Below are positions 9,116 to 37,091 of a stretch of 37,476 bases of DNA, piece by piece. This DNA comes from Desulfobacteraceae bacterium. Lineage in GTDB: Bacteria; Desulfobacterota; Desulfobacteria; Desulfobacterales; Desulfosarcinaceae. The notes below the pieces were generated by a model. That model saw nothing but the letters and a program-made list of their open reading frames with translations, was not told the origin of the DNA and made no database searches. A program made the position numbers and the translations under genes. The stretch is taken from contig QZKV01000182.1 of the NCBI GenBank assembly GCA_003599575.1, positions 1-37,476 of the forward strand, written 5' to 3'. Position 1 is the first letter of the stretch, and each line of letters begins with the position of its first letter.

Positions 9116-12100
9116 CTACGGGAAAATGGATTGCCCCCGCTCCCTGCGCAGGCCGAGTTTCCGGATTTTGGAGGTCAAGGTGCTGGGGTTGATGTCGAGG
9201 AGTTCCGCCGCGCCGCCCGTTCCGCTGACTTTCCAATGGCACATTCGAAGCGCTTTCAGGATGTGCTGCTTCAAATTCTCGTCCAGAGTGGGAAACCGGC
9301 CGGGGGAAGAGGCTTCCTTTAGATCGATCTGCTTTCCGAATTCCGGGAGTTCGAAAACGGAGGCGCTGCTCATGATGACTCCCTGCTCGATGACATGTTC
9401 CAGTTCCCGTACATTGCCGGGCCACGGGTGATCGATGAGCCGGCGGACATCCGCCTTGCGAATATTCAATTGCTTTTTGCCGAACTTCTTACAAAATTTA
9501 TCCAGAAAAAAGTGGGTCAGCAGCGCGATATCCTCTTTTCTTTCCCTCAAAGGCGGCACGTGGACGGGGAAGACATTCAAGCGGTAATAAAGATCTTCGC
9601 GAAACCTTTCCTGGCTGACCATCTGATCGATATTCTGATGCGTCGCAGCGATCAATCGAAAATCCGAGTGCAGTGTCCGGCGCCCGCCGACCCTTTCAAA
9701 TTCTCCGCTTTGCAGCACTCTGAGCAACCGGACCTGAATCTCCGTGCCGATATCTCCTATTTCGTCGAGAAAGAGCGTGCCGCCGTCAGCCAGCTCGAAG
9801 CGTCCGGGCCGGGTTTCATGCGCGCCGGTGAAGGCGCCTTTTTCATAACCGAACAACTCGCTGGCGATCAGCGTTTCGGGGAAGGCACTGCAGTTCACCC
9901 GTATGAACGGCTTGTCGGCCCTGCGGCTTTGCCGCACCAGGGCGGACGCAACCAACTCCTTGCCCACACCCGTTTCGCCTGTAATCAGGACCGTGGCGTC
10001 GGTGGCGGCCACCCGGGTGACTTTTTCCAGCATGTGCCGTACGGCGGCCGATTGGCCGATAAAGCTGTCCAGGCGCGTGGGTTGCGGGCCGGGTTGCGCA
10101 TGCAAGTTTTCTTCGATGCGTCTTTTTTTCAGGCGGCCGATCTCCTCGTGCGCATCGGCACTCTCGATGGCGATCGCCGCCTGGGCGGCGAAATAGGTGA
10201 AGATCGGGTGGTTCTCTTTTTCAAAAACCGAAGAAAACCAGCGGTTGTCGAAGTAAAGCACGCCCACGATCTCCTTGCGCAGAAACATGGGCACGCAGAT
10301 GCACGACAGCATTCCGGATGCCGTGCTGAAAGAGGCGCGTTTATCTTTGATCTCTTTGATCACCACCTGACCGCCGCCCGCGGCTTCGCGTATGGCTCGC
10401 ATGGAATCCTGGAAAATGGGCTGGCCGATCTCTTCGACGGTTAGATTTTTGGCGGCCTTCAGAACAAATTCCCAGGGCTGCGCCTCTTTGTCGACCTGGA
10501 AGATGGCGCCCCTTTCGGCGCCGGTGATGCGGATGACGGTGAGGATGATCTGGCGAATGGTGTCCCGGCTGTGGGCGGTCATCACCATCTCCTGGCTGAG
10601 TTGAATCATCGAATCCATGACGCTGCGCTTGCCGTCCAGGGGGCCGATCAGGAAGCTGAGGTCGTCCGGAAAAGGCAGGCCTTCCTGGGCCAGAACGGCC
10701 CCGGCCGCTTGATGGGCGGCCTCTTTGGCCCTTCTTTTGTCGCCGGACTTAAGGTATATCCGGGCCATTTCGATGTGCGTTCTGGCTAAAGCAAGCTTGT
10801 GCCCGGATTGCCGTAATGTCCGCGCGGACCGGTTCAACAGGCCCTGGACCTCCGGCAAAGGAGCGTTGCGACGGTTCTTCAGCATGGCCAGATAGCGGTA
10901 TCCGGTGCCCTGGAACACAAGGCTCGGGCTGTGGATCGCGCGTTCAATCTCTTTGTCCAGATCCAGTGCCGCCACACGGGGATATCGTTGGAGTTCCATA
11001 TCCCAGCTCAGCCGCAGCATATACCCGAATGACGAGAAGGGATTGCCGGCGGCCTGACTCTCATCGGCCAGTTTCAAGGCCTGCTGCAAACAGGCCACCG
11101 ATGGCTTTAATTCCCTCCGCCGGTAATGCACATAGGCTTGCAAAAGGAAGATATCTTTCTGGAAACTGATGCTGAATTGTTGAAAACTGCTCTTCTTCTT
11201 GCTGCTCAAGAGCCGATGGGCGTCATCAATGCGCCGGACGCTGATCAAAATGTCGCACAACATCAGCTCTCCGGATTCGGCGATCTTGGGGAGCCCGATT
11301 TTCCGGCAGTGATCGCACAGTGCCTGAAACATGCCGACGCCCTGATTGACTTTGCCGATGTTGGCGTAGCTGTAGGCAATGGCGATGGAGGCCGACAGCG
11401 GCGCGGAAAGCCTTGAAAACTGATCGATGTCCTGCGCGTACTTCTCATACACCGCAATGGCCTCGCGGAATCGCCCCCGCCAATAGTAATAAAATACGCT
11501 GAACATGGACAAGGTTCTGAGCAATTCCAGCCGGCCCACCTGTTCGGCGATTTCCCAGGCCCGCTTGAAATGGCGCGCAGAAGCGCCGTAATCGGCTTTG
11601 AGCCAGAACTTATTGGCCAACTGGATGCTGATCAACGCCTGCATGGGACGGTTTTTGGAGGTCACGGCTTTACGCAAGGCCTCTTGAAAGGTGGCCACGA
11701 TCCAGTTTAAATCCGCCCCGATATAGGTGAAATTGCCCAGGCGGTTGACCGCTTCCACGAAAAGCCGGTCCGCCGCCTCGGATGATATGGTTCTCAACAC
11801 ATCGGTGGCCTTGATATAACAGGCCATGGCTTCGTTTTCCAAGGCGCTTCCAGCGTAATCGTCGCCGGCCTTGATCAGCCACTGGCAATCCTCGAAACAA
11901 AGGGTGCTCAGCGCCAGCAGGTGACTGGACAGAATCCTGGCGTTGCGTCCATCCTCGGAAATTTCATTGATCAGCACACCGATCATCCTGCGGTGCAGCT
12001 GCTCTTTTTCTTTTTCGGAGATGCCATGGTATCGGCTTACGGCCTGCTTGGCGTTGACCACGCGATAAAACCCAGGCCGCACCAAGGCCAGTTCTTTTTT

Positions 12101-12265
12101 TTGTATCCCGCAATCGAGCAGAAGAAGGATGTGTGAAGCTTTTAAATTGGAGAGCTCCTGGAGCCAATCAATGGAAAACTCACTTTCAAACAGCACCGCA
12201 ATGGACATCAGGCGCCTGTAATCATCGGTCCGATCACAATCGGCACCATCTGGATTCGCATGCAT
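9116..12265 (-). CDS. Sigma-54-dependent activator with TPR, GAF, AAA+ and Fis-type HTH
   Basis: 1049 residues. The N-terminus (about 1-150) resembles the winged-helix/linker segment that follows the P-loop in STAND ATPases, yet no STAND P-loop precedes it. A helical TPR-like array spans about 150-530, a GAF domain about 555-705, and the sigma-54 AAA+ domain about 733-960. The AAA+ domain has Walker A GETGVGKE (763-770), an intact GAFTGA loop (810-815) and Walker [13 protein letters not shown] Fis-like HTH lies at about 1000-1040. Such proteins remodel sigma-54 RNA polymerase from an upstream enhancer; here TPR and GAF should sense protein and small-molecule signals. The start has CGGAGTG upstream. 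The gene diverges from the AbfD-like enzyme gene, whose upstream region has a -24/-12 element, so that gene is the likely target. No phosphoacceptor receiver domain is present. Confidence 0.92.
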   Translation of the reverse strand: MHANPDGADCDRTDDYRRLMSIAVLFESEFSIDWLQELSNLKASHILLLLDCGIQKKELALVRPGFYRVVNAKQAVSRYHGISEKEKEQLHRRMIGVLINEISEDGRNARILSSHLLALSTLCFEDCQWLIKAGDDYAGSALENEAMACYIKATDVLRTISSEAADRLFVEAVNRLGNFTYIGADLNWIVATFQEALRKAVTSKNRPMQALISIQLANKFWLKADYGASARHFKRAWEIAEQVGRLELLRTLSMFSVFYYYWRGRFREAIAVYEKYAQDIDQFSRLSAPLSASIAIAYSYANIGKVNQGVGMFQALCDHCRKIGLPKIAESGELMLCDILISVRRIDDAHRLLSSKKKSSFQQFSISFQKDIFLLQAYVHYRRRELKPSVACLQQALKLADESQAAGNPFSSFGYMLRLSWDMELQRYPRVAALDLDKEIERAIHSPSLVFQGTGYRYLAMLKNRRNAPLPEVQGLLNRSARTLRQSGHKLALARTHIEMARIYLKSGDKRRAKEAAHQAAGAVLAQEGLPFPDDLSFLIGPLDGKRSVMDSMIQLSQEMVMTAHSRDTIRQIILTVIRITGAERGAIFQVDKEAQPWEFVLKAAKNLTVEEIGQPIFQDSMRAIREAAGGGQVVIKEIKDKRASFSTASGMLSCICVPMFLRKEIVGVLYFDNRWFSSVFEKENHPIFTYFAAQAAIAIESADAHEEIGRLKKRRIEENLHAQPGPQPTRLDSFIGQSAAVRHMLEKVTRVAATDATVLITGETGVGKELVASALVRQSRRADKPFIRVNCSAFPETLIASELFGYEKGAFTGAHETRPGRFELADGGTLFLDEIGDIGTEIQVRLLRVLQSGEFERVGGRRTLHSDFRLIAATHQNIDQMVSQERFREDLYYRLNVFPVHVPPLRERKEDIALLTHFFLDKFCKKFGKKQLNIRKADVRRLIDHPWPGNVRELEHVIEQGVIMSSASVFELPEFGKQIDLKEASSPGRFPTLDENLKQHILKALRMCHWKVSGTGGAAELLDINPSTLTSKIRKLGLRRERGQSIFP

Positions 12266-12368
12266 CGTTGTTCACTCCGCAGGGGAATTGCTTTTAGACA
12301 GCATCTAATTTGTCACATTTAATCAATTTTTTTATATTTAGCAAATTCTATCCCGGCATATTTATCGG

Positions 12369-12398
12369 ACGGCATCCCCGTGCCGGCCATGCTGCCGT
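12369..12398. promoter_or_regulatory. Nested inverted repeats, candidate activator-binding site
   Basis: CGGCA (12370-12374) pairs with TGCCG (12381-12385), and ACGGCA (12369-12374) also pairs with TGCCGT (12393-12398). The cluster lies 34-63 bases upstream of the -24 GG. That is closer than most enhancers but in the right place for the divergently encoded activator. Assignment is inference. Confidence 0.4.
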
Positions 12399-12429
12399 AA
12401 TTACAATCAATCCCCGCACGGGCCGCATA

Positions 12430-12446
12430 TCGGTACAGGCTTTGCT
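12430..12446 (+). promoter_or_regulatory. Candidate sigma-54 promoter of the AbfD-like gene
   Basis: CGGTACAGGCTTTGCT has GG at 12432-12433, exactly 10 bases, then GC at 12444-12445, with the TTGC -12 box intact. It departs from the TGGCAC consensus at two -24 positions. Transcription would begin near 12457, leaving a leader of about 200 bases. The divergent sigma-54 activator supports the call. Confidence 0.6.
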
Positions 12447-12655
12447 TTAACGTTTCCCCATTCAGGCGTTGCCGTGTCCCGGGAGAGATGCCCTCATCCG
12501 CGGGCAACATACGCTCAAACGGGTTCGATACCGATGCCCATAGCGCCCTATTCAGAATTCTTTAAGGGGGCGTATCGGGATCGAAGGATTCGCCGAACCG
12601 AATTGATTCCGTTCTGCGGGCGCACCCAAAAACCCTATCCACCAGAGGAGGAACC

Positions 12656-14098
12656 ATGATTAAGACACCCGAGCAGTATATCGAGAGCCTCAGAGACGGC
12701 AGAGTGGTCTATCAGGACGGTCAGAAGGTTGAGGATGTGCCCTCTTTCCCCCCGTACCGGCAGATGGTCAACCGTTCGGCCTCCGAATTTCACGTGGCCA
12801 TGCAACCCGAGTACCGCGATTTGTTCAATGTCCGCGAAAACGGTGATGAGTACTCCTTTGCCTACCATGTGCCCAAGACCGGTGCGGACATCCAGCGCCG
12901 CCGGACGATCACCCAGACCTTGAGCCGCCTCGGTGCGGGCGGGTCCAAGCTCACGGGTGTGGATGCGCTCAACGGGGTGGCCTATGCGGCCCACACCATG
13001 GATAAAATGGCCGGAACCCAATACGGCCAGCGGGTGGATGCCTTCAGGCAGTGGTGCCGGGACAATGACCCGGGCATTTGCGCGGCGGTCAGCGACCCCA
13101 AGGGCAACCGGGAACTGCACGCCGAAGATCCGCGCCAGAAACATAAGGATTTTTACGTCCGCATCGTGGATCGGCAAAAAGACGGCATTGTCATCAACGG
13201 CTGCAAACTGCACATCAGCCATTCCATTTTTTCCAACGAACTGGTCGTCCTGCCCTCCCGCAACCACAACGAAACCGGCAAAGATTATGCCGTTTCCTGC
13301 GCGGTTTCCTGCGGCACCAAGGGGGTCAAGTTTCTCGCCACCGACAGCAGCATTGCCGGCGGCGGCGGGCATCCCATGATCATCTTCGACAATGTTTTCG
13401 TTCCCAACGAACGCGTGTTCCTGGCCGGCGAATGGAAATTTTCCAGGTTGTACGCGACCTCCTTCGCCCGCTACCATCGCTTGACCGCCGCCACTTACAA
13501 GCATGTGCAGCTCCAAAACATGGCCGGTCTGGCCAGGCTGATCGCCGAACACAACGGGTTGACCAAAGCCACGCGGATCATGGACATGCTGGCCTGGCTG
13601 GCCATGTATGCGGAGGTCACCGAGGCGCTGGGCAAAGCCGCGGCGCTGGACGCCAAGGTGGACCCCAAGACGGGCTTTGCACAGCCCAACTATGTCTATA
13701 CCAATTGCGCCAAATTCTGGTTCGCCGACAACTGGCACCAGGCCATCAAGTATCTGCAGGACATTACCGGCGGCATCGCCGGGACCATGCCGTCGCCCAA
13801 GGACTACGAGAATCCCGAAACAAAGCCGTATATCGACAAATACCTGGGCGGCGCAGCCGATATGTCCACGGAAGAAAGATTGAAGGTGCTGCAGGCGATC
13901 AATCGGATGTCTTCGGCTTTCGGAGGCATTCTGACGATCCATGCGGAAGGGTCGCTGGCATCGCAGCGCATGACCCTCTACCAGCAGGCCGATTGGGAAT
14001 TGTTCAAGGCCGCCGCCCGGCACTCATTGAAGATTCCCACCGATCATCCGACCTTCAAGGAGATGTCCGTGGACGCGCCCTGGGAATTGAAGGAATAG
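12656..14098 (+). CDS. 4-hydroxyphenylacetate 3-hydroxylase / 4-hydroxybutyryl-CoA dehydratase family flavoprotein
   Basis: 480 residues matching the HpaB/AbfD family (acyl-CoA-dehydrogenase-like fold with FAD) over its full length. Family segments include LTGVDALNG (99-107), SDPKGNRELH, the FDNVFVPNERVF segment and SFARYHRLTA. In true AbfD, three cysteines and one histidine (Cys99, Cys103, His292, Cys299 in Clostridium, from memory) hold a [4Fe-4S] cluster. Here the equivalent places read Gly95, Leu99, His274 and Tyr281, so only the histidine remains. A cluster-dependent dehydratase is therefore doubtful. No HpaC-like flavin reductase lies nearby, so a two-component monooxygenase is not supported either. 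The ribosome site AGAGGAGG is excellent. The gene stands alone under a sigma-54-type promoter beside its probable activator. Exact reaction unknown. Confidence 0.85.
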   Translation: MIKTPEQYIESLRDGRVVYQDGQKVEDVPSFPPYRQMVNRSASEFHVAMQPEYRDLFNVRENGDEYSFAYHVPKTGADIQRRRTITQTLSRLGAGGSKLTGVDALNGVAYAAHTMDKMAGTQYGQRVDAFRQWCRDNDPGICAAVSDPKGNRELHAEDPRQKHKDFYVRIVDRQKDGIVINGCKLHISHSIFSNELVVLPSRNHNETGKDYAVSCAVSCGTKGVKFLATDSSIAGGGGHPMIIFDNVFVPNERVFLAGEWKFSRLYATSFARYHRLTAATYKHVQLQNMAGLARLIAEHNGLTKATRIMDMLAWLAMYAEVTEALGKAAALDAKVDPKTGFAQPNYVYTNCAKFWFADNWHQAIKYLQDITGGIAGTMPSPKDYENPETKPYIDKYLGGAADMSTEERLKVLQAINRMSSAFGGILTIHAEGSLASQRMTLYQQADWELFKAAARHSLKIPTDHPTFKEMSVDAPWELKE

Positions 14099-14267
14099 TC
14101 CGGCAGAACCGCCGGTGGTTCCGGCGGTCACACCTTCGCGGCGATGCCGGCGCGCACCGGCTTCGCCGTGACGCCCTGCAGGCTGTTGCAAATGCGCACC
14201 TGGAAGCGGCGCCCTGGTTTCCGGCACTGGCGATGAATTGATCAAGCCTGGGTGGATCGCGGCGTTG

Positions 14268-14289
14268 AAATGGGGTTTTTGCCCCATTT
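14268..14289. other. Perfect 8-bp hairpin, 3' region of AbfD-like gene
   Basis: AAATGGGG (14268-14275) and CCCCATTT (14282-14289) pair perfectly around a TTTTTG loop. No T-run follows on the plus strand. It may assist termination or protect the transcript's 3' end. Confidence 0.4.
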
Positions 14290-14332
14290 AGTTTCGATAC
14301 CGCACCTGGTACTAAAACACTGGGTGCGCTGA

Positions 14333-15128: not shown

Positions 15129-17723
15129 CTACTTGCGGTTCCCGGCCTCATCCAGGGCCTTGCGCACCATGGCGGCCAGTTCGGATCTGACCAGCGGCTT
15201 CATCAGGAATCCTTTGATACCTATGGCGGCTGCTTTTTCAGGGTTGAGCGCTTCGCTGAAACCGGTGTTGATGATGATGGGAATACCGGGGCGGATTTTG
15301 AGGATCTCCCGAGCCAGTTTATCGCCGGTCATGGTGGGCATGGTCATGTCGGTGACGATTAAATCGAAACGCTCGGGATGGGCTTTGAACGTTTCGAGCG
15401 CATCCAGGCTGGACGTTCGCGAGGTCACTTGATAACCCAAGCGCTCCAGCATCAGTCCGGTAATGTGAGCAATGGGTTCTTCGTCATCGACCAGGAGTAT
15501 ATTTTCCGTGCCGCCGCGAATCGGCTGTGCGGGATCAACGGCGGCCTTTTCCAGCCTGGGGGCCATAATGGGCAAATAGACGTGAAACTCGGTTCCCTTG
15601 CCCGGCTCGCTGTAGACAGTGATATCGCCGCCGCTGCTTCTGACGATGCCCTGCACGACGGAGAGGCCCAATCCCGTGCCTTTGCTTTTATCTTTGGTTG
15701 TGAAATATGGATCGAAGATCTTGTTCAGCACATCTTTCGCAATACCCGAGCCCGTATCCGCCACCGAAAGACGGGCGTAGTCCCCCGGCCTCAAGCCAGG
15801 GTACCGCGGTGGTTTATCTTCGATCCGAACCTGCTTCAGTAAAACCGTCATTTTCCCGCCGGCGGGCTCCATGGCATGGTACGCATTGGTGGCAAGATTC
15901 ATCACGATTTGATGAACCTGAATGGGATCTGCGATGACAGCACCGCAATCGGCATCAATCTTCTGCTCCATGGCGATTGTCTTTGGAATCGAGGCGCGCA
16001 GCAGCTTCAGCGCTTCCTTGAGGATGGGCTGGAGCCTGATCGGTTTGAGTTCCTGTTCGGCCTGACGGCTGAAGGCAAGGATCTGGTTCACCAGATCCTT
16101 GGCCCGGGAGGCGGCGCGCTGAATTCCATCGATGTAGGTGTGGAGATGGCTGCCCGGCGGGACATCGTCTTTGAGGATTTCGGCAAAACCGAGCAGAGGG
16201 GTCAAAATGTTGTTAAAATCGTGGGCAATACCGCCCGCCAGCGTCCCGATGGCCTCCATTTTCTGAGACTGGCGCAGTTTTTCTTCTATCCGGATCTCCT
16301 CCGTTATATCGCGCTTGACGGCCACAAAGCTCACTATTTCACCCTTTTCATTAAACACCGGAGATATGGTTGCTTTTTCCGAGAAGAGCGTGCCGTCTTT
16401 GCGCTTGTTGATCATCATGCCCGACCAGTTCTGCCCGTTGGAAATGGTTTGCCATAAACCCTTGTAAAATGCATCGTCATGCCGGCCGCTTTTCAAAATG
16501 CGCGGATTTCGGCCGATCACTTCATCGCGCGCATATTTGGTCACCTTTTGAAAAGCCGGATTGGCGTAGAGTATATTGCCGGCGCGATCGGTTACCATGA
16601 CCATGTCGCCGACCTGTTCGATCGCGGCTGTGAGACGTTTTTGTTCTTCCTGCATTTCTACAATACTTGAAATGTCGCGTATCGATTCGATCACCTTGCT
16701 GACTTTACCCTGGCTGTCCTTGATGGGGGAAAGAACGATGTCCACCCACACATACGAGCCGTCCGGCAGTTTGTGCTTGTGAATACAGGTGCACGGGTTG
16801 CCGGTAGACAGGACTTCCTGGAACCGGCAGTTTTCACCACGCCGGTCGCAGGGCTCATACAATCCATGCGAAACCTCGAAACAGGGCCGTCCGATAATGT
16901 CTTCCCTTTTTTCTCCGGACAGCCATAAAACCGGGCCATTGATATCTTCTATGATGTAGTCGGTGGAGATTACCAATATATCCTCATGGATGTTCTGCAA
17001 CAGCGAGCGGTAATAGTGTTCGCTGCGCCGTAAATCGGCCCCGACCTCCTGTTCTTTTAATAGTGCCCTCTTCAGGCCGTTGAGCATCAAGGCCGTCGTC
17101 AGGCTGACAAAGGCGTTGAGGAGGAGAAAATTGGTCGTCACCACCAGCCACTTCTCCAGCGCATTTTCCAGATGCAGCGCCCACGCCGGTGATCCGTAGG
17201 CCACATAAACCGCCACAGCCAAGAGGGTCAAGGCATTGAGCGTCAGTGTTATAAAAGCCGCTTTGAGGCCGACGACGGTGCTTAGCATCACCGAAGCACC
17301 GAACAACCAGATGTACCCTGCGCCCACAGGCCCGAGCATAAAAAGCAGTCCCACTCCCAGGACGTACAAGACGAGACAGGCGGCATAGGCCCGCACTTTC
17401 AAAGGCACGCTGCTGCCGCGGAGCAAGATCCATACAAATGTGGCGTAGACAACGCAGTCCAGCCAAACGATCTTCCATAAGCCTTCATGGTATGCCAAAA
17501 GGAGCGAGGGGATGAGGGCGAAAGGCCCCAACACAATGGCGATAAGGCACATCACCAGTATGATGCGCTCTTGCCAACGCGTCAGCGGATCGCTTTCCCA
17601 TACATGGGCAGGCAAGCGCTTTCTTTCCAGCGTGTGCCAGCTTTGTCCAGTCTTTTCAACAAATCGGGTTATCAATGTGCTCGGCCTCGTACACTGCATC
17701 AGCAACGGTAATGGGATTTTCAC
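15129..17723 (-). CDS. Membrane hybrid histidine kinase with two PAS domains and receiver
   Basis: 864 residues. Five to six transmembrane helices span about 52-215. PAS1 (about 235-352) carries Cys281, His286, Cys292, Cys299, Cys311 and Cys313. PAS2 spans about 365-475. HisKA contains His501 in GGIAHDFNN, and the HATPase domain has NLATNAYHAM, DTGSGI and GTGLGLSVVQG. A C-terminal receiver (about 743-860) has Asp792 and Lys842. The kinase should autophosphorylate at His501 and pass phosphate to Asp792, then to an unlinked phosphotransfer or response protein, as no output domain or neighbouring regulator is seen. Initiation is uncertain: GTG at 17723 or ATG at 17699, neither with a strong ribosome site. 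It sits upstream of rpsD on the same strand but 143 bases away. Confidence 0.9.
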   Translation of the reverse strand: MKIPLPLLMQCTRPSTLITRFVEKTGQSWHTLERKRLPAHVWESDPLTRWQERIILVMCLIAIVLGPFALIPSLLLAYHEGLWKIVWLDCVVYATFVWILLRGSSVPLKVRAYAACLVLYVLGVGLLFMLGPVGAGYIWLFGASVMLSTVVGLKAAFITLTLNALTLLAVAVYVAYGSPAWALHLENALEKWLVVTTNFLLLNAFVSLTTALMLNGLKRALLKEQEVGADLRRSEHYYRSLLQNIHEDILVISTDYIIEDINGPVLWLSGEKREDIIGRPCFEVSHGLYEPCDRRGENCRFQEVLSTGNPCTCIHKHKLPDGSYVWVDIVLSPIKDSQGKVSKVIESIRDISSIVEMQEEQKRLTAAIEQVGDMVMVTDRAGNILYANPAFQKVTKYARDEVIGRNPRILKSGRHDDAFYKGLWQTISNGQNWSGMMINKRKDGTLFSEKATISPVFNEKGEIVSFVAVKRDITEEIRIEEKLRQSQKMEAIGTLAGGIAHDFNNILTPLLGFAEILKDDVPPGSHLHTYIDGIQRAASRAKDLVNQILAFSRQAEQELKPIRLQPILKEALKLLRASIPKTIAMEQKIDADCGAVIADPIQVHQIVMNLATNAYHAMEPAGGKMTVLLKQVRIEDKPPRYPGLRPGDYARLSVADTGSGIAKDVLNKIFDPYFTTKDKSKGTGLGLSVVQGIVRSSGGDITVYSEPGKGTEFHVYLPIMAPRLEKAAVDPAQPIRGGTENILLVDDEEPIAHITGLMLERLGYQVTSRTSSLDALETFKAHPERFDLIVTDMTMPTMTGDKLAREILKIRPGIPIIINTGFSEALNPEKAAAIGIKGFLMKPLVRSELAAMVRKALDEAGNRK

Positions 17724-24275: not shown

Positions 24276-24710
24276 GTCAGCTACGCTCCTGATCGTCTCA
24301 AAGCAACCAGCTCCGTCGCGGACGACCTGTCCCGTGCACTCCGGCTGAATTCTGGTCAGCGAGAATTGCTGGTTTCAAAGCCTATGAACTTAGCAGACTC
24401 ATGCGATTGGTTCCAGAAAAACCGATTTTGCCGTGTTTCCGCCGTTGCAACGACTGCAGCGATGGTATACGTCGCACTTCGGACTGGCGAAAATTGCGCT
24501 GCCCCGAAAATTGCAGATGGGAGGTGCGTCGGTCCGATTTTTGTCATCGCCGGTATCGGCCGTCGGCAGGTAGAAAGGTATGCATTGCCCCGCAAGGATT
24601 ATGAAAAATTTTCCTTCCGGCGCTTGGCAGGTTTTTTGCTTTGGATGGGCTCGTGAAAATGCGATCCGGCGGAACATGCCGGGTCCGAAATAATTGTGGA
24701 GGTGTTTGCG
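24276..24710. other. Intergenic region, no gene seen
   Basis: 435 bases between the divergent small membrane gene and SPOR gene. I see no recognisable coding sequence, hairpin or clear promoter pair; it must carry both genes' promoters. Confidence 0.4.
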
Positions 24711-25574
24711 TTGAAGGATACCCTATCGACAGGCAATCAGAACGGGTCGATTCCATTGAAATGGCTGGGCGGTTTTTTGGTTTTTATCGGGCTGATTGCC
24801 GCCGCGGTTCAATTTCTGCCCGGTCGCGCCGCTCCAGTGCCGGCACGGACCGTCGTAAGGGGCAAGATACCGGCCCCTCCGGTTGCCCTGCCGGCTGGGG
24901 CTCCCGCGCGTGCGGAGGATACGGCCGCATCCGATTCCGGGATACAGGTGCGGGAACAGGCGGCCGCGCCGGAGGAAAAAACAGACCTGGACGACCTGCG
25001 CCTATCCGGTGGGCGCGCCGATCCGACTACCTCCGCAGAAGGCGCCGTTTGGCCTGAAGTAAAAACCCCCGCCTCTGCGCAGACGGCTGCTTCCGTGCAG
25101 GGGACCCCGACGGGGCAGATCGACCCCCAGGCGCAGGACCGGCAGCCCGGTATGGCATCGATGCAAACCGCGGCCGGCCCGCCGGTGGTTGAAACGGCGC
25201 TTCCGACAGAGGTCCGGGCGCCAAAGGATGTTTCGGCAGGCGCAGAAAAGTCGACCGCCGCGGCTCTAACCGAGCCGGCCGCGGCGGCGGCGCCAAAAAT
25301 AGATCTATCCGGAGTTGTCCCTGCCGTGCAGGCGCTGTTTACGATTCAAGTGGGCGCCTACCGCACCAAGGCCTATGCCGATGAGTGGTTTGAGCGCCTG
25401 CAAAAAGCGGGCTATGCGCCATTTATTTTCGAAGTGCAGGATGCCCGCAAAGTTGCCTTTTTTACCGTGCGGATCGGTCAATTCGCCAGCCGGGAGTCGG
25501 CCATGCAAGCAGTGCACGACTTCAGGAAAAAAGAGAAGGTACCTGCGGTCATACGGCGCAGCGGAGCGCTGTAA
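24711..25574 (+). CDS. Membrane-anchored SPOR-domain protein
   Basis: 287 residues: a short cytoplasmic tail, one transmembrane helix (about 18-37), a long Ala/Pro/Glu-rich linker (about 40-205) and a C-terminal SPOR domain (about 212-285) with FTIQVGAYRTKAYADEWFER and FFTVRIGQFASRESA. SPOR domains bind denuded peptidoglycan glycans at division septa, so the protein is probably an envelope or division accessory anchored in the inner membrane (FtsN/DamX-like layout). TTG at 24711 is the likely start because GGAGGTG (24698-24704) is spaced 6 bases from it; the in-frame GTG at 24696 overlaps that ribosome site. No division gene lies beside it. Confidence 0.85.
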   Translation: MKDTLSTGNQNGSIPLKWLGGFLVFIGLIAAAVQFLPGRAAPVPARTVVRGKIPAPPVALPAGAPARAEDTAASDSGIQVREQAAAPEEKTDLDDLRLSGGRADPTTSAEGAVWPEVKTPASAQTAASVQGTPTGQIDPQAQDRQPGMASMQTAAGPPVVETALPTEVRAPKDVSAGAEKSTAAALTEPAAAAAPKIDLSGVVPAVQALFTIQVGAYRTKAYADEWFERLQKAGYAPFIFEVQDARKVAFFTVRIGQFASRESAMQAVHDFRKKEKVPAVIRRSGAL

Positions 25575-33031: not shown

Positions 33032-34600
33032 TCACACGCGCCCCTTCCGTTGAATTCCCAGGCGCACGGCCAGTTTGAACAGATTGCTGCGGTTCATGCC
33101 GAGCTGCCGGGCCGCGGCCGCCCAATTGCCGTGGTGACGTGTCACGGCCTGCACGATCAGGTCTCTTTCGAGGCTGTCCACCGCCTCGCGGAGCGTTGCC
33201 TGCCGGCCGGGAAGAGGCGCGACGGATGCAGCCGCCGTGAGCGGACCGTCCGGAACGCACGCGATGCTGTCCAGCCCCATATGCGCCGGACCTACTTCAA
33301 CCTGCCCGTTGCCTGCGGTCTGGGCGGATGCCTTCAGCACCGCCCTTGATATGACGTTCTCCAGCTCACGGACATTGCCGGGCCAATGCAATAGGTTCAG
33401 GCACTGCAAAGTGTCCGAAGACAGGCGCACCGGCCCCAAACCCAACTGGCGCTGAATTTTGTCGCAGAAATAGCCGGCCAGCAGGGGGATGTCCTCGCGC
33501 CGCTCGCGCAGAGGGGGGACGCGCAGTGGGTAAACATTCAAGCGATGAAACAGGTCTGCGCGGAAACGGCCGGCGGAGATCTCCTTTTCCAGATCGCGGT
33601 TGGTGGCCGCCAGCAGGCGGACATCCACCGATTTGGCGCGACCATCGCCCACGCGCTGGATTTCGCCGTGTTGCAGAACCCTCAACAACTTGGGTTGAAC
33701 GGTCAGCGGCAATTCACCGATCTCGTCCAGAAACAGGGTCCCGCCGTCGGCCAGTTCGAATTTGCCCGTGCGGTCCGCTACGGCGCTGGTGAAAGCGCCG
33801 CGCACATGGCCGAACAATTCGCTTTCGGCCAAGGCCTCCGGCAGAGCCGCGCAATTCAGATAGAGCATGGGCTGTTCGCGCCGCCGCGAGCCGGCATGGA
33901 TGGCGCGAACCACCAGCTCCTTGCCCACCCCCGTCTCTCCGGTTACCAGGACGCTGAAATCCGAAGGCGCCACCAGTTCGATTTCCCTGCGCAACCGCTG
34001 CATGGCCGTGCTGCGGCCGATCGGTTCCAAGCCGCTGGTTTTACGCGCATCCTGCATCAAATCTTTGGCGATCAAACCCATTTTTTCCGCGCTGTGGGCC
34101 AGGGCCTGGATCAGATCGATGGTCTGCATCTGCGCGGCCGCCAGCGCTGCAACCGCCTGAATAAAACGCAGGTCCAGGCCGTCGAAAGCATGCGGATCGA
34201 TGGCATCGGCGGTCAGCGCGCCGATCAGCGTTTCGCCCGCGCGCAACGGGCACCCCAGGCAGGAGTGAATGCGCCCGCCGGAGGGCGGCATATCCTCCAG
34301 CAGGCCGTCGAACGGATCCGGGTAAGGTGCGTCGGCCGGAAAACGGACCGGCGCAGCGGCGTTGCAGATGATGTCGAGGCGGGGATGGGACTCGCGGCGG
34401 AAGCGCCGGCCCATCGCATCGGGGGCCAGACCGATGGCCGCGGCCACCCGCATTTCCTCTCCCTCCAAGCGCAGCAATGCGGCGGCATCGTAAGGAATGA
34501 CGCGCTTGAGCGCGTCCAACAGCCGCTGGTAGCGTGCCTCGGCCGTCAAGCCGGCGGTCATGTCCAGGGCAATGTCGATGAGAAGGTCGATGGTTTTCAT
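33032..34600 (-). CDS. norR: NorR, nitric-oxide-responsive sigma-54 activator
   Basis: 522 residues, co-linear with E. coli NorR. The N-terminal GAF domain (about 20-165) keeps the residues proposed to hold the mononuclear non-haem iron that binds NO: Arg74, Asp95, Asp98, His112 and Asp132, by remembered alignment. The AAA+ domain (about 190-420) has Walker A GETGVGKE (221-228) and Walker [12 protein letters not shown]. Its sigma-54 loop reads GAFTSA (268-273) in place of GAFTGA. The Fis-type HTH lies near the C-terminus (about 480-520). Upon NO binding it should activate the divergent norZ gene through three sites at 34602-34663. Its ATG has no ribosome site, so initiation may be leaderless or weak; the start agrees with E. 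coli NorR. Confidence 0.93.
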
Positions 34601-34700: not shown

Positions 34701-34717
34701 TTGGTACACAGGTTGCT
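34701..34717 (+). promoter_or_regulatory. Sigma-54 promoter of norZ
   Basis: TTGGTACACAGGTTGCT: GG at 34703-34704, exactly 10 bases, GC at 34715-34716; TTGC -12 box intact and one mismatch (T for C) in TGGCAC. Transcription should begin near 34727, leaving a leader of about 64 bases. An A/T-rich tract lies just upstream. Confidence 0.85.
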
Positions 34718-34790
34718 CTCCAAGAGTTCGTCTGAATCGTATCCGCATCGACGGTTTAACAATTCAATGATTAACGAAAGGATCACAACC

Positions 34791-37091
34791 ATGACCAACA
34801 CCCGACGCTTATGGATCATTTTCGGCCTGTCCGTGTTCGGCGCCTTTTTTATCCTGGGCTGGTTCGGCCGCGAGGTCTATCGCCAGGCACCGCCCATTCC
34901 GGATCGGGTGCTCACCACGGACGGCCGGCAGCTCTTCACCAGGGAAGACATTTTACGCGGCCAGCAGGTCTGGCAAAGCATCGGCGGCCAGCAAATCGGG
35001 TCGATCTGGGGCCATGGCGCCTACCAGGCCCCCGACTGGTCGGCCGACTGGCTGCACCGGGAAGCGCTGGCCCTGCAGGGGCTGCTCAGCCAAAAGCGCT
35101 TCGAACGCAACTTTTCCGAGCTGGGCACCGTCGAGCGGGCCGCCGTTAATGCCGAATTGGGCGAGACGATGCGCGGCAATACCTATGCTCCCGCGACCGG
35201 CACATTGACCTTGAGCCCCCTGCGGGCTGCGGCGATCGATGAAACGGCCCAACATTATATGGCCCTTTTTGGGGACGATCCGCAATTGGACGGACTGCGC
35301 GAAAGTTATGCGCTGCATACGTCGGCGATTCCCGACATGGGCCGCCGCCGGGCCATGACCGCCTTTTTCTTCTGGACCTCTTGGGCGGCGGCCGCGCAAC
35401 GGCCCGGGACCGCGGTCACCTACACCAACAACTGGCCCCATGAACCCCTGGTCGGCAACCAGGCCACGCCCGCCAGCCTGCTCTGGTCGCTGGTCAGCAT
35501 CGCGCTGCTGCTGGCCGGCATCGGCGCCCTGGTGTGGTTCAAGAAATTCCGCGACGACAGAGAAGATTTGCCCGTCCCGCCGGCCAGCGATCCCTTGGAT
35601 CAGCTCACCACCACCCCTTCGATGCGCGCAACGGCCAAGTATGCCTATATCGTAGTCGCCCTGTTCGCCGTGCAGGTGCTGTTAGGCGCGCTGGTGGCCC
35701 ACTACACGATCGAGGGTCACAGCTTCTTCGGCATTCCCCTTTCCGATATTCTGCCCTATGCCACCGCGCGCACATGGCACATCCAGCTGGCCGTCTTCTG
35801 GATCGCCACCGCGTTTCTGGCCGCCGGTCTCTATCTGGCGCCGGCCGTGGGCGGGCGTGAACCCAAATTCCAGCGCCTGGGGGTCCACGTCCTCTTTGGC
35901 GCGCTGGTGCTGGTCGTGGGCGGTTCGCTGCTGGGCGAGTTTTTGTCAATCCGTCAGGTGCTGGGACTGGATGCGGGATTCTGGTTCGGCCATCAAGGCT
36001 ACGAGTATGTGGACCTGGGCCGTTTCTGGCAGATCCTGCTGTTCATCGGCCTGGTGCTGTGGCTGGTGCTGGTGCTGCGCGGCCTGTGGCCGGCTTTGCG
36101 TGAAAAGGGCCACCGGCGGCAGCTGGTGCTCCTTTTCGCGGGCGCTTCCGGTGCGATCGGGCTGTTTTACGCGGCCGGCTTTTTCTACGGCGCCCGCACC
36201 CACCTGTCGGTCATGGAATATTGGCGCTGGTGGGTGGTGCACCTGTGGGTGGAAGGTTTCATGGAGGTTTTTGCCACTGCCGCGCTGGCCTTTGTTTTCT
36301 CACGCATGGGGCTGATCCGGGCTTCTACGGCCACCGCCGCCGTGCTGCTGACCTCGGCCATTTTCCTGTTCGCCGGGATTCCGGGCACCTTCCACCATCT
36401 CTATTTTTCCGGCACGCCGGTCTCCATCATGGCCATCGGGGCTTCCTTCAGTGCCCTGGAAGTGGTGCCTTTGGCCCTGGTGGGGTTCGAGGCCTGGGAA
36501 ACCTATCGCATGGGCGGCCGGGCGCCCTGGATGTCCGCTTACCGCTGGCCGATCCGCTTCTTCATCGGCGTGGCCTTCTGGAACCTCGTGGGAGCCGGCG
36601 TTTTTGGGTTCATGATCAATCCGCCCATCGCCCTGTACTACATGCAGGGGCTCAACACCACGCCGCTGCACGGCCATGCGGCTCTGTTTGGCGTGTACGG
36701 GCTGCTGGCCCTCGGACTGATCCTGACCGTGCTGCGGCGCCTGCAACCCCGCGGGGTCTGGCGCGAAGGACCGTTGCGCACCGCCTTTTGGGGAATGAAC
36801 ATCGGTTTGGCCCTCATGATCGTGCTCAGCCTGCTGCCGGTCGGTTTGGCCCAGGCCTGGGCCAGCATGACCCATGGGCTGTGGTATGCCCGCAGCGCCG
36901 ATTTCCTGCAGCTGCCTGTTTTAGAGACGCTGCGCTGGCTGCGCGTTGTCGGCGATACCGTATTCATCATCGGTGTGGGGGCCCTGGCATGGTTTGTCAT
37001 CGGCCTGAAGACCGGCTGGTCTTACACCGCTGGCCAGGACCGCGCCGCCATCCCGCTGTCGGGCCGCCCCGCCAAAGTGCCTGGCCTCTAA
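34791..37091 (+). CDS. norZ: Quinol-dependent nitric oxide reductase (qNOR)
   Basis: 766 residues, the usual qNOR length. One N-terminal helix (8-25) is followed by a large periplasmic domain fused from the NorC role, without a haem c CxxCH motif, then about twelve helices of the NorB-type catalytic core. Haem and metal ligands are visible: His330 and His629 or His627 for the haems, FeB ligands His484, His535 and His536, and Glu488/Glu492 near the active site (WVVHLWVEGFMEVF). It reduces 2 NO to N2O with electrons from the quinol pool in the inner membrane. With no denitrification genes seen beside it, NO detoxification is likely. ATG 34791 is preferred, with AAAGGAT 7 bases upstream; ATG 34767 lacks such a site. 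It is driven by the sigma-54 promoter at 34701 and NorR. Confidence 0.95.
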   Translation: MTNTRRLWIIFGLSVFGAFFILGWFGREVYRQAPPIPDRVLTTDGRQLFTREDILRGQQVWQSIGGQQIGSIWGHGAYQAPDWSADWLHREALALQGLLSQKRFERNFSELGTVERAAVNAELGETMRGNTYAPATGTLTLSPLRAAAIDETAQHYMALFGDDPQLDGLRESYALHTSAIPDMGRRRAMTAFFFWTSWAAAAQRPGTAVTYTNNWPHEPLVGNQATPASLLWSLVSIALLLAGIGALVWFKKFRDDREDLPVPPASDPLDQLTTTPSMRATAKYAYIVVALFAVQVLLGALVAHYTIEGHSFFGIPLSDILPYATARTWHIQLAVFWIATAFLAAGLYLAPAVGGREPKFQRLGVHVLFGALVLVVGGSLLGEFLSIRQVLGLDAGFWFGHQGYEYVDLGRFWQILLFIGLVLWLVLVLRGLWPALREKGHRRQLVLLFAGASGAIGLFYAAGFFYGARTHLSVMEYWRWWVVHLWVEGFMEVFATAALAFVFSRMGLIRASTATAAVLLTSAIFLFAGIPGTFHHLYFSGTPVSIMAIGASFSALEVVPLALVGFEAWETYRMGGRAPWMSAYRWPIRFFIGVAFWNLVGAGVFGFMINPPIALYYMQGLNTTPLHGHAALFGVYGLLALGLILTVLRRLQPRGVWREGPLRTAFWGMNIGLALMIVLSLLPVGLAQAWASMTHGLWYARSADFLQLPVLETLRWLRVVGDTVFIIGVGALAWFVIGLKTGWSYTAGQDRAAIPLSGRPAKVPGL

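What the first reader, a model, noticed from the sequence alone, without database searches (positions are those of the whole stretch)
9116..14098. Sigma-54 activator with truncated-STAND/TPR/GAF sensor paired with a divergent AbfD-like enzyme
The regulator fuses a TPR array and a GAF domain, typical sensors of STAND kinases, to a sigma-54 AAA+ motor and Fis HTH, but lacks any STAND P-loop. It diverges from a single enzyme gene with a -24/-12 element (GG-N10-GC at 12432-12445) and nested CGGCA/TGCCG repeats. This is the enhancer architecture of NorR/norZ in the same window, with an unknown signal and unknown reaction. Seen: domains, motifs, promoter. Inferred: that this regulator controls this enzyme.
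Basis: partly seen in the sequence, partly recalled or inferred. Interest (0 to 1): 0.7.

Follow-up and report, generated by a model that had tools for sequence, protein, structure and literature searches.

The report
Sensor-switch pair for anaerobic catabolism
A large sensor-activator gene, related to kinase-STAND signalling proteins but without their own motor, sits back to back with a flavin-type enzyme of unknown reaction that lacks its relatives' iron-sulphur ligands, and the same kind of activator recurs beside key enzymes of anaerobic degradation.

Summary
Window 9116-12265 (-) encodes a 1049-aa sigma-54 activator (winged-helix-like N-terminus, TPR, GAF, AAA+ with GAFTGA, Fis HTH), divergent from a single 480-aa enzyme gene (12656-14098, +), with a -24/-12-like site at 12430-12446. 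It belongs to a family of ~1040-1080-aa regulators. In 35 members tested, 18 have a significant -24/-12 site facing away from the regulator, 2 of 35 on its own strand. Neighbours include a glycyl-radical enzyme, benzoyl-CoA-reductase-type proteins, AFOR, acyl-CoA dehydrogenase, carboxyltransferases and, in 7 of 36 (5 lineages), relatives of this enzyme. A same-phylum protein has the fuller form kinase-STAND-wHTH-TPR-GAF-sigma54-HTH; 0 of 32 family members keep an N-terminal P-loop, so 'truncated STAND' is supported. 'AbfD-like' holds for fold, not active site: the three recalled cluster cysteines and two catalytic glutamates are replaced, as are HpaB's substrate residues. The enzyme belongs to a clade without these cysteines that keeps the AbfD histidine. 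The exact pair is not fixed: of 7 enzymes found at about 65% identity or more, 2 have the regulator, 4 do not, 1 is cut off. The enhancer repeats are marginal. A new variant of a known kind.

The parts
9116..12265 (-). Regulator gene, 1049 aa: wHTH-like + TPR + GAF + sigma-54 AAA+ + Fis HTH
12029..12226 (-). N-terminal winged-helix-like domain (residues 14-79), counterpart of the region that follows the STAND NTPase in a longer homologue
   Evidence: AF2 model (block pLDDT 70-86 over residues 11-80); profile A4 aligns at residues 630-786 of the 1825-aa homologue L166:3532-9009
10682..12016 (-). Helical TPR-type sensor region (residues about 84-528)
10166..10561 (-). GAF domain (residues 569-700)
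9563..10060 (-). Sigma-54 AAA+ domain (residues 736-901), GAFTGA at residues 810-815
9314..9547 (-). AAA+ lid (residues 907-984)
9155..9271 (-). Fis-type HTH_8 (residues 999-1037); 20.9 bits against a cut-off of 22 here, found in 31 of 32 family members at E<=0.01
12370..12385 (.). CGGCA-N6-TGCCG dyad within a cluster of CGGCA/TGCCG words (12354-12397); candidate activator site, weak
12430..12446 (+). -24/-12-like element TCGGTACAGGCTTTGCT (GG 12432-12433, GC 12444-12445), starting 226 nt upstream of the enzyme ATG
12310..12338 (+). Competing sigma-70-like match TTGTCA-17-TATATT (10 of 12); 1.3 promoter-like sites expected by chance in the 12200-14320 region scanned
12645..12651 (+). GAGGAGG, likely ribosome-binding site of the enzyme gene
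   Evidence: read from sequence
12656..14098 (+). Enzyme gene, 480 aa: HpaB_N + HpaB domains, AbfD fold, without the AbfD cluster cysteines

Best explanation
The regulator is a one-component sigma-54 activator. Its sensor arm (winged helix + TPR superhelix) is shared with kinase-STAND signalling proteins, but kinase and STAND NTPase are missing (most simply, lost), so the sigma-54 AAA+ ring is the only NTPase. With no ligand, sensor arm and GAF hold the AAA+ ring inactive (inferred). When the substrate, its CoA ester or a partner protein binds the TPR/GAF unit, the protein forms a ring, contacts sigma-54 through GAFTGA and opens the -24/-12 promoter at 12430-12446 (inferred). This switches on the divergent enzyme. 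The enzyme is probably a flavin-only member of a clade of the AbfD/HpaB superfamily without the Fe-S ligands, acting on an acyl-CoA-type intermediate (dehydrogenation or isomerisation) with the conserved His274 as base (inferred). Shown: domains, promoter-like site, family-wide outward promoter-like sites, shared STAND-type sensor arm, absence of the cluster ligands. Not shown: ligand, reaction, flavin, promoter use in the cell.
For: Domains and GAFTGA. Outward -24/-12 sites at p<0.05 in 18 of 35 family members against 2 of 35 on the regulator strand; linked to divergent neighbours, 16 of 22 against 2 of 13, Fisher p=0.0016. Divergent neighbours identified by Pfam are largely catabolic enzymes. 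STAND link: L166, 1825 aa, Pkinase-AAA_16-wHTH-TPR-GAF-sigma54-HTH; 0 of 32 N-terminal P-loops; STAND-TPR protein 6mfv is the top Foldseek hit, though only just ahead of other TPR proteins. Enzyme: nearest structure AbfD 1u8v, TM 0.89; cluster ligands replaced; histidines equivalent to AbfD H292, H188 and H458 kept in 30 of 30 sequences without cysteine at AbfD positions 99 and 299; clade neighbours include CoA ligases, SDRs, acyl-CoA dehydrogenases and thiolase-like proteins.
Against: The window's own site is not consensus (CGGTAC, not TGGCAC) and its p is 0.02, not overwhelming. The only other pair with a close enzyme (G115) has a sub-threshold site (7.7 bits, p=0.27, 0.22). A sigma-70-like match lies upstream. 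Four of seven close enzymes lack the regulator. The window regulator has no close relative (best 41%), an end branch of 1.51, and is not nearest to the G115 regulator. No enhancer dyad common to the family. The N-terminal model rests on two sequences, pTM 0.54. Substrate and flavin binding were not tested.
Confidence: 0.66

Rival explanations
1. The enzyme gene is transcribed from a sigma-70 promoter (12310-12338) or by another factor, and the neighbouring activator controls other genes; the -24/-12 match is chance.
For: TTGTCA-17-TATATT, 10 of 12 matches, on the + strand. Four of seven close enzymes lack the regulator and have no significant sigma-54 site. The window site is an imperfect match.
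Against: About 1.3 such sigma-70-like sites are expected by chance in the region scanned. The family as a whole shows outward sigma-54 sites with strong strand asymmetry.
Confidence: 0.2
2. The enzyme is a 4-hydroxybutyryl-CoA dehydratase or vinylacetyl-CoA isomerase of the AbfD type.
For: Best sequence and structure match is AbfD 1u8v, then 6vjr.
Against: All three Fe-S cysteines and E257/E455 are replaced (gap/L/Y and H/L; residue roles recalled). The same genome carries four paralogues with the three cysteines, one of them (L005) matching AbfD at all 13 positions inspected.
Confidence: 0.05
3. The enzyme is an oxygen-using, HpaB-type two-component flavin monooxygenase.
For: Pfam name HpaB. 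FMN_red genes lie near two relatives: L120 2063-2620 and L071 988-1794.
Against: HpaB residues R100/Y104/H142 (recalled) are K/A/A. HpaB and L110 lie on the other side of a fully supported branch of a quick tree (the root was set there). Nearest structure is AbfD, not HpaB. The six named close relatives are MAGs called Desulfobacteraceae (2), Deltaproteobacteria (3) and Chloroflexota (1); lifestyle was not tested.
Confidence: 0.1
4. A transferred catabolic gene was placed next to an activator of this family: the pairing is recent, and the signal sensed need have nothing to do with this enzyme's substrate.
For: Patchy enzyme distribution: in the window's genus, E<=1e-60 matches other than the window's own gene are at most 45% identical. 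The regulators of the two close-enzyme pairs are not sister groups.
Against: Enzymes of this clade occur in the divergent cluster of 7 of 36 regulators, in about 5 lineages, which suggests a functional link.
Confidence: 0.15

Closest known systems
One-component sigma-54 activators divergent from their target (NorR/nitric oxide reductase; D. vulgaris DVU3142/ohc)
   Same: Sensor + AAA+ (GAFTGA) + Fis HTH; divergent target with a -24/-12 promoter. PMC4641369 (passages read) reports six of thirteen one-component EBP genes divergent from sigma-54 promoters.
   Different: Sensor is winged helix + TPR + GAF; NorR model score 350.3 against cut-off 476.
Kinase-STAND-TPR-GAF-sigma54 protein found here (L166, 1825 aa)
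   Same: Winged helix, TPR, GAF, sigma-54 AAA+ and HTH align in order.
   Different: The window protein and its family (32 of 32 aligned) have no N-terminal P-loop pattern and no kinase domain among the 25 most frequent Pfam families.
4-hydroxybutyryl-CoA dehydratase AbfD (1u8v)
   Same: Fold (TM 0.89), equivalents of His292, His188, His458 and Lys300.
   Different: No cluster cysteines, no E257/E455; outside the 26-row Fe-S group of the tree.
4-hydroxyphenylacetate 3-monooxygenase HpaB (2yyg)
   Same: Pfam domains and fold (TM about 0.83).
   Different: R100/Y104/H142 replaced; separate group in the tree.
Sigma-54 control of COG2368 (the COG of AbfD and aromatic ring hydroxylases) in Clostridia, PMC12316311 (passages read)
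   Same: Flavin enzymes of this superfamily under sigma-54.
   Different: Reported there for Clostridia; the passages I saw do not describe this regulator type or an Fe-S-free clade.

Membership tests
Sigma-54 enhancer-binding protein (bEBP) | Sigma54_activat AAA+ with GAFTGA and bEBP Walker A | tested here: met
   PF00158 236.4 bits; GAFTGA at residue 810, Walker A at 763
Sigma-54 enhancer-binding protein (bEBP) | C-terminal Fis-type HTH | tested here: met
   HTH_8 E 2.9e-4, 20.9 bits, just under the cut-off of 22; 31 of 32 family members match at E<=0.01
Sigma-54 enhancer-binding protein (bEBP) | Activates a -24/-12 promoter | tested here: inconclusive
   Site present, control p 0.02; use in vivo not testable here
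NorR / NifA equivalogs | Score above NCBIfam cut-off | tested here: not met
   NorR 350.3 vs 476; NifA 366.2 vs 528.85
STAND NTPase | NTPase domain with P-loop before the winged helix and TPR | tested here: not met
   0 of 32 have GxxxxGK[ST] before residue 700; the homologue L166 has AAA_16 at 317-506
STAND NTPase | Winged helix + TPR sensor arm | tested here: met
   by homology to the region after AAA_16 in L166, L165, L168 and L169; model, 75 of moderate quality
AbfD (4-hydroxybutyryl-CoA dehydratase) | Cluster ligands C99, C103, C299, H292 (recalled) | tested here: not met
   gap, L, Y, H in the window enzyme
AbfD (4-hydroxybutyryl-CoA dehydratase) | Catalytic E257 and E455 (recalled) | tested here: not met
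   H239 and L426
HpaB monooxygenase | R100, Y104, H142 substrate residues (recalled) | tested here: not met
   K98, A104, A143
HpaB monooxygenase | NCBIfam HpaB-1/HpaB-2 cut-off | tested here: not met
   142.5 vs 480.2; 88.2 vs 885.2
AbfD/HpaB superfamily (HpaB_N + HpaB) | Both Pfam domains over cut-off | tested here: met
   199.8 and 157.8 bits
AbfD/HpaB superfamily (HpaB_N + HpaB) | Binds FAD | not testable with these tools
   fold only

The most novel reading that the evidence does not exclude
This phylum carries a whole class of kinase-STAND-derived activators that threw away kinase and STAND motor and handed control to the sigma-54 AAA+ ring. The class is a general substrate-sensing module for anaerobic catabolic islands: glycyl-radical, benzoyl-CoA-reductase, AFOR and carboxylase clusters. 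One of its favourite targets is a third branch of the AbfD/HpaB superfamily that has no Fe-S cluster and does not use oxygen, catalysing a reaction not yet described on CoA intermediates.
Probability: 0.4. Interest if true: 0.7.

Novelty: new variant of a known kind. Interest (0 to 1): 0.5.

Why it matters
Desulfobacteria hold the most sigma-54 activators of the genomes surveyed in PMC12316311 (passages read), and catabolic modules of Desulfobacteraceae are reported to be run mostly by single-component activators such as sigma-54-dependent ones (PMC11887813, one passage read). If this class is real, its members are handles: each regulator points to a divergent promoter and to a degradation cluster whose substrate can be screened. 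It would also give a clean case of a STAND-type sensor arm working without its own NTPase, and a relative of AbfD without the Fe-S ligands with which to ask what the cluster of AbfD is for.

Tried and rejected
Tested for enhancer dyads shared by the family (35 upstream regions): no word-and-spacing pair occurs in more than 3 of 35. Numbers of regions with a 5-bp inverted repeat at a given spacing were mostly near those of Markov sequences; spacings 4 (22 against 14.1) and 5 (19 against 13.1) were the highest and were not followed up. Looked for conserved DNA upstream of the 84% enzyme (G135/L068): the contig ends 118 nt upstream, and that stretch holds no -24/-12 site. Looked for a close regulator orthologue: none over 41% identity among the members aligned; 27 of 389 genomes of the order match at E<=1e-70 with the N-terminal 725 aa, and the 'class' search returned the same matches. 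Pfam scan of the N-terminal 180-aa pieces gave only weak hits (nSTAND_NTPase4 in 2 of 32, DprA_WH in 1 of 32) and a PDB profile search with them found only TPR-type or weak matches; the STAND link was settled by longer homologues instead. HpaB monooxygenase and genuine AbfD were considered for the enzyme and rejected on residues. The reaction could not be identified.

Papers: no paper on this regulator architecture or on the Fe-S-free enzymes turned up (0 papers each; 3; 13; 69 hold at least 3 of 4 terms, 20 listed; 6). Only open PMC papers are held, so absence from print is not shown. Seen as passages only: PMC11887813, PMC5109826, PMC4641369, PMC12316311, PMC6615313; the others only as listings.

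Limits. The sigma-54 matrix was written from recall of the published consensus; controls are other stretches of the same loci. The regulator set is a selection: of the 44 non-window matches the 18 strongest were fetched in 17 stretches (with two enzyme loci); the other 26 (weaker, about 21-25% identity) were not examined for neighbours. Of 19 further matches, 18 were fetched (G305, cut at the contig start, was not). One fragment (L124) failed the length filter, giving 36 regulators with the window. Some are near copies (L111/L153, L112/L152, L114/L116, L150/L154, L157/L158), so 18 of 35 and 7 of 36 overstate independent lineages. In L152 the -24/-12 site coincides with the called TTG start of the enzyme ORF, and upstream of that start no significant site is left (p=0.14), so it counts only if the true start is later. 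In one search the site calls were carried over by hand, and L113 was scored 'not divergent' because of a probably spurious ORF. Not every neighbour was scanned with Pfam (for example those of L114, L147, L153, L164 were not); some labels in the tree rest on resemblance. The enzyme tree is a quick one with long-branch warnings and used 58 of 79 rows; the 21 dropped rows all have the three cysteines. The enzyme list at about 65% or more comes from 146 relatives and a peptide-pattern scan that may miss members. Residue roles of AbfD and HpaB are recalled.
Full report
Observation. The regulator ORF is 9116-12265 (-), 1049 aa, and the enzyme ORF is 12656-14098 (+), 480 aa. The regulator carries Sigma54_activat, an AAA+ lid and GAF above Pfam cut-off; TPR_MalT/TPR_12 and HTH_8 are below it, but 27 of 32 and 31 of 32 family members match TPR_12 and HTH_8 at E<=0.01. 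GAFTGA is at residue 810; 27 of 32 members have the exact string GAFTGA and 5 do not; 29 of 32 have the bEBP Walker A pattern searched for. The enzyme is HpaB_N + HpaB.

Promoter. With a sigma-54 matrix written from recall, the reported site 12430-12446 scores 11.6 bits and ranks fourth in the whole window on both strands; control p is 0.02. On its own this is modest, so I tested the family. In 35 members (36 listed; L156 had only 4 nt upstream), the best site in 500 nt on the strand facing away from the regulator was significant (p<0.05) in 18 of 35, against 2 of 35 on the regulator's strand. Splitting by whether the nearest upstream ORF of at least 150 aa is divergent within 700 nt gives 16 of 22 with a site when divergent and 2 of 13 when not, Fisher p=0.0016. 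Near copies among the members make the effective number smaller. Against: the only other pair with a close enzyme (G115) has a sub-threshold site (7.7 bits), the L152 site coincides with the called start of its enzyme ORF, and a sigma-70-like match (10 of 12) lies at 12310-12338.

Repeats. CGGCA/TGCCG occur 5 times in the 390-nt intergenic region, 1.28 expected; the exact CGGCA-N6-TGCCG dyad occurs once in the window, at 12370. But 6.6% of real 390-nt stretches have as many copies, and no dyad is shared by more than 3 of 35 upstream regions. I do not count them as shown enhancers.

Regulator family and its neighbours. Searching 146 relatives with the N-terminal 725 aa gave 24 genomes at E<=1e-15; 389 genomes of the order gave 27 at E<=1e-70. 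The aligned members are 28-40% identical to the window protein. A profile of the N-terminal 180 residues also matches ORFs of about 1040-1070 aa elsewhere in the phylum (27 of 297 genomes at E<=1e-8, shorter and longer ORFs included). Divergent neighbours identified by Pfam: acyl-CoA dehydrogenase (L111), AFOR (L113, 2.8 kb away), glycyl-radical enzyme (L116), cysteine-rich-domain (CCG) proteins (L117, L122), carboxyltransferases (L118, L119), HGD-D (L125), BcrAD/BadFG ATPase (L126); the small ORF beside L121 matched nothing. In L154 the first divergent gene is an acyl-CoA dehydrogenase, in L123 an amine-oxidase-like flavoprotein, in L127 an SDR. HpaB-superfamily enzymes of the Fe-S-free group are the first divergent gene in four (window, L120, L112, L152) and further along in three (L123, L154, L150): 7 of 36, about 5 lineages. 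L119 has an Fe-S-type relative behind its carboxyltransferase gene. Several members sit beside genes of the same direction and have no outward site.

STAND link. One of the longer proteins found, L166:3532-9009 (1825 aa), has Pkinase 12-278, AAA_16 317-506, GAF 1325-1476, Sigma54_activat 1512-1678 and HTH_8 1786-1821. The family's N-terminal profile aligns at 630-786, after the NTPase, and the full family profile aligns at 630-789 and from 996 to 1824. L165, L168 and L169 carry kinase or cyclase plus AAA_16 before the same region; an own-genome protein (L167, 588 aa) has the region without a P-loop. The window's N-terminal model (560 aa, two sequences, pLDDT 73.9, pTM 0.54) shows a winged-helix order of elements followed by paired helices. 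Its top PDB match is the STAND-TPR protein 6mfv (E 3.2e-7, TM 0.37), but other TPR proteins follow closely (5a7d, 4.7e-7). None of 32 members has GxxxxGK[ST] before residue 700. 'Truncated STAND' is therefore well supported by homology. That the NTPase was lost rather than gained is the simplest reading and was not tested.

Enzyme. Best PDB sequence hits are AbfD 1u8v and 6vjr, then HpaB; the model (pLDDT 89.6) matches 1u8v best, TM 0.89. Positions recalled as AbfD cluster ligands C99, C103 and C299 are a gap, L99 and Y281; E257 and E455 are H239 and L426; H292, H188, H458 and K300 are kept as H274, H186, H429 and K282. HpaB's recalled R100/Y104/H142 are K98, A104 and A143. Of 79 sequences aligned, 47 have all three cysteines; 30 of the other 32 (HpaB and L110 set apart) lack the 99 and 299 cysteines, and all 30 keep the three histidines; 9 of these 30 keep one cysteine at position 103. 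On a quick tree of 58 of these rows, rooted on HpaB and L110, the 30 form one group (SH-aLRT 92, below the 95 mark) and the 26 Fe-S rows another (99); long branches are flagged. The own genome has 8 members: 4 with the three cysteines, 3 with none of them (the window one included) and 1 with one. Neighbours of Fe-S-free enzymes include CoA ligases, SDRs, acyl-CoA dehydrogenases, thiolase-like proteins and, twice, FMN_red proteins. An acyl-CoA-type substrate is my inference from this.

Is the pair conserved? Of the 7 enzymes found at about 65% identity or more (window, G135/L068 84%, L069-L072 69-70%, G115/L073 65%), the regulator is divergent in 2 (window, G115); no match to any part of the regulator lies in the fetched flanks of 4 (L069-L072: 6 kb upstream, 1.4-6 kb downstream); G135 is undecidable (contig end 118 nt upstream). 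By Pfam, L071 has a CoA ligase, an SDR and MarR upstream, L072 a ligase and an SDR, L070 MarR; none of L069-L072 has a significant sigma-54 site. The window and G115 regulators are not sisters on the tree, and the window one is a long branch (1.51) of uncertain place. So the enzyme often travels alone, and the regulator family is what recurs.

Verdict. A sigma-54 activator with a STAND-type sensor arm and no STAND motor, most likely controlling its divergent neighbour, an enzyme of a clade without the AbfD cluster ligands. Divergent one-component activators with sigma-54 promoters are known (PMC4641369, passages), and sigma-54 control of this COG is reported for Clostridia (PMC12316311, passages). 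What I did not find described in the searches made is the sensor architecture as a family, its recurrence beside anaerobic catabolic enzymes, and the Fe-S-free clade.

Noticed in passing
window 33032-34600 (-) and 34701-37091 (+): GAF-sigma54-HTH activator divergent from a NorB-type nitric oxide reductase; a strong -24/-12 match (15.0 bits) at 34701-34717 begins at the called TTG start, so the true start codon is probably further downstream.
   Followed up: partly
window 24624-24640 (+): Best -24/-12 match of the whole window (16.05 bits, TTGGCAGGTTTTTTGCT), just upstream of the SPOR-domain protein ORF 24696-25574.
   Followed up: no
L166:3532-9009 (+): 1825-aa protein fusing Ser/Thr kinase, AAA_16 (STAND), winged helix, TPR, GAF, sigma-54 AAA+ and Fis HTH in one chain.
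   Followed up: partly
L125 and L126: Regulators of a separate branch of the family divergent from HGD-D and BcrAD/BadFG proteins (benzoyl-CoA-reductase type), with -24/-12 sites of 16.0 and 12.1 bits facing these genes.
   Followed up: partly
L114 and L116: Family regulator divergent from a glycyl-radical enzyme gene in two genomes of the window's own genus, with -24/-12 sites of 13.0 and 15.0 bits (Pfam on the L116 gene only).
   Followed up: partly
L002 1390-3405 and eight relatives (L014, L016-L020, L022, L034): A sister clade of the enzyme that keeps a single cysteine (AbfD position 103) and has lost the others.
   Followed up: no
L119 1872-3338 (-): A Fe-S-type AbfD-like gene (all three cysteines) lies near a family regulator, behind a carboxyltransferase gene.
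   Followed up: no
35 upstream regions of the regulator family: 5-bp inverted repeats with spacing 4 or 5 occur in more regions (22 and 19 of 35) than Markov sequences give (14.1 and 13.1).
   Followed up: no
window 15129-17723 (-): Hybrid histidine kinase with MASE11, PAS domains and a receiver domain, close to the pair.
   Followed up: no
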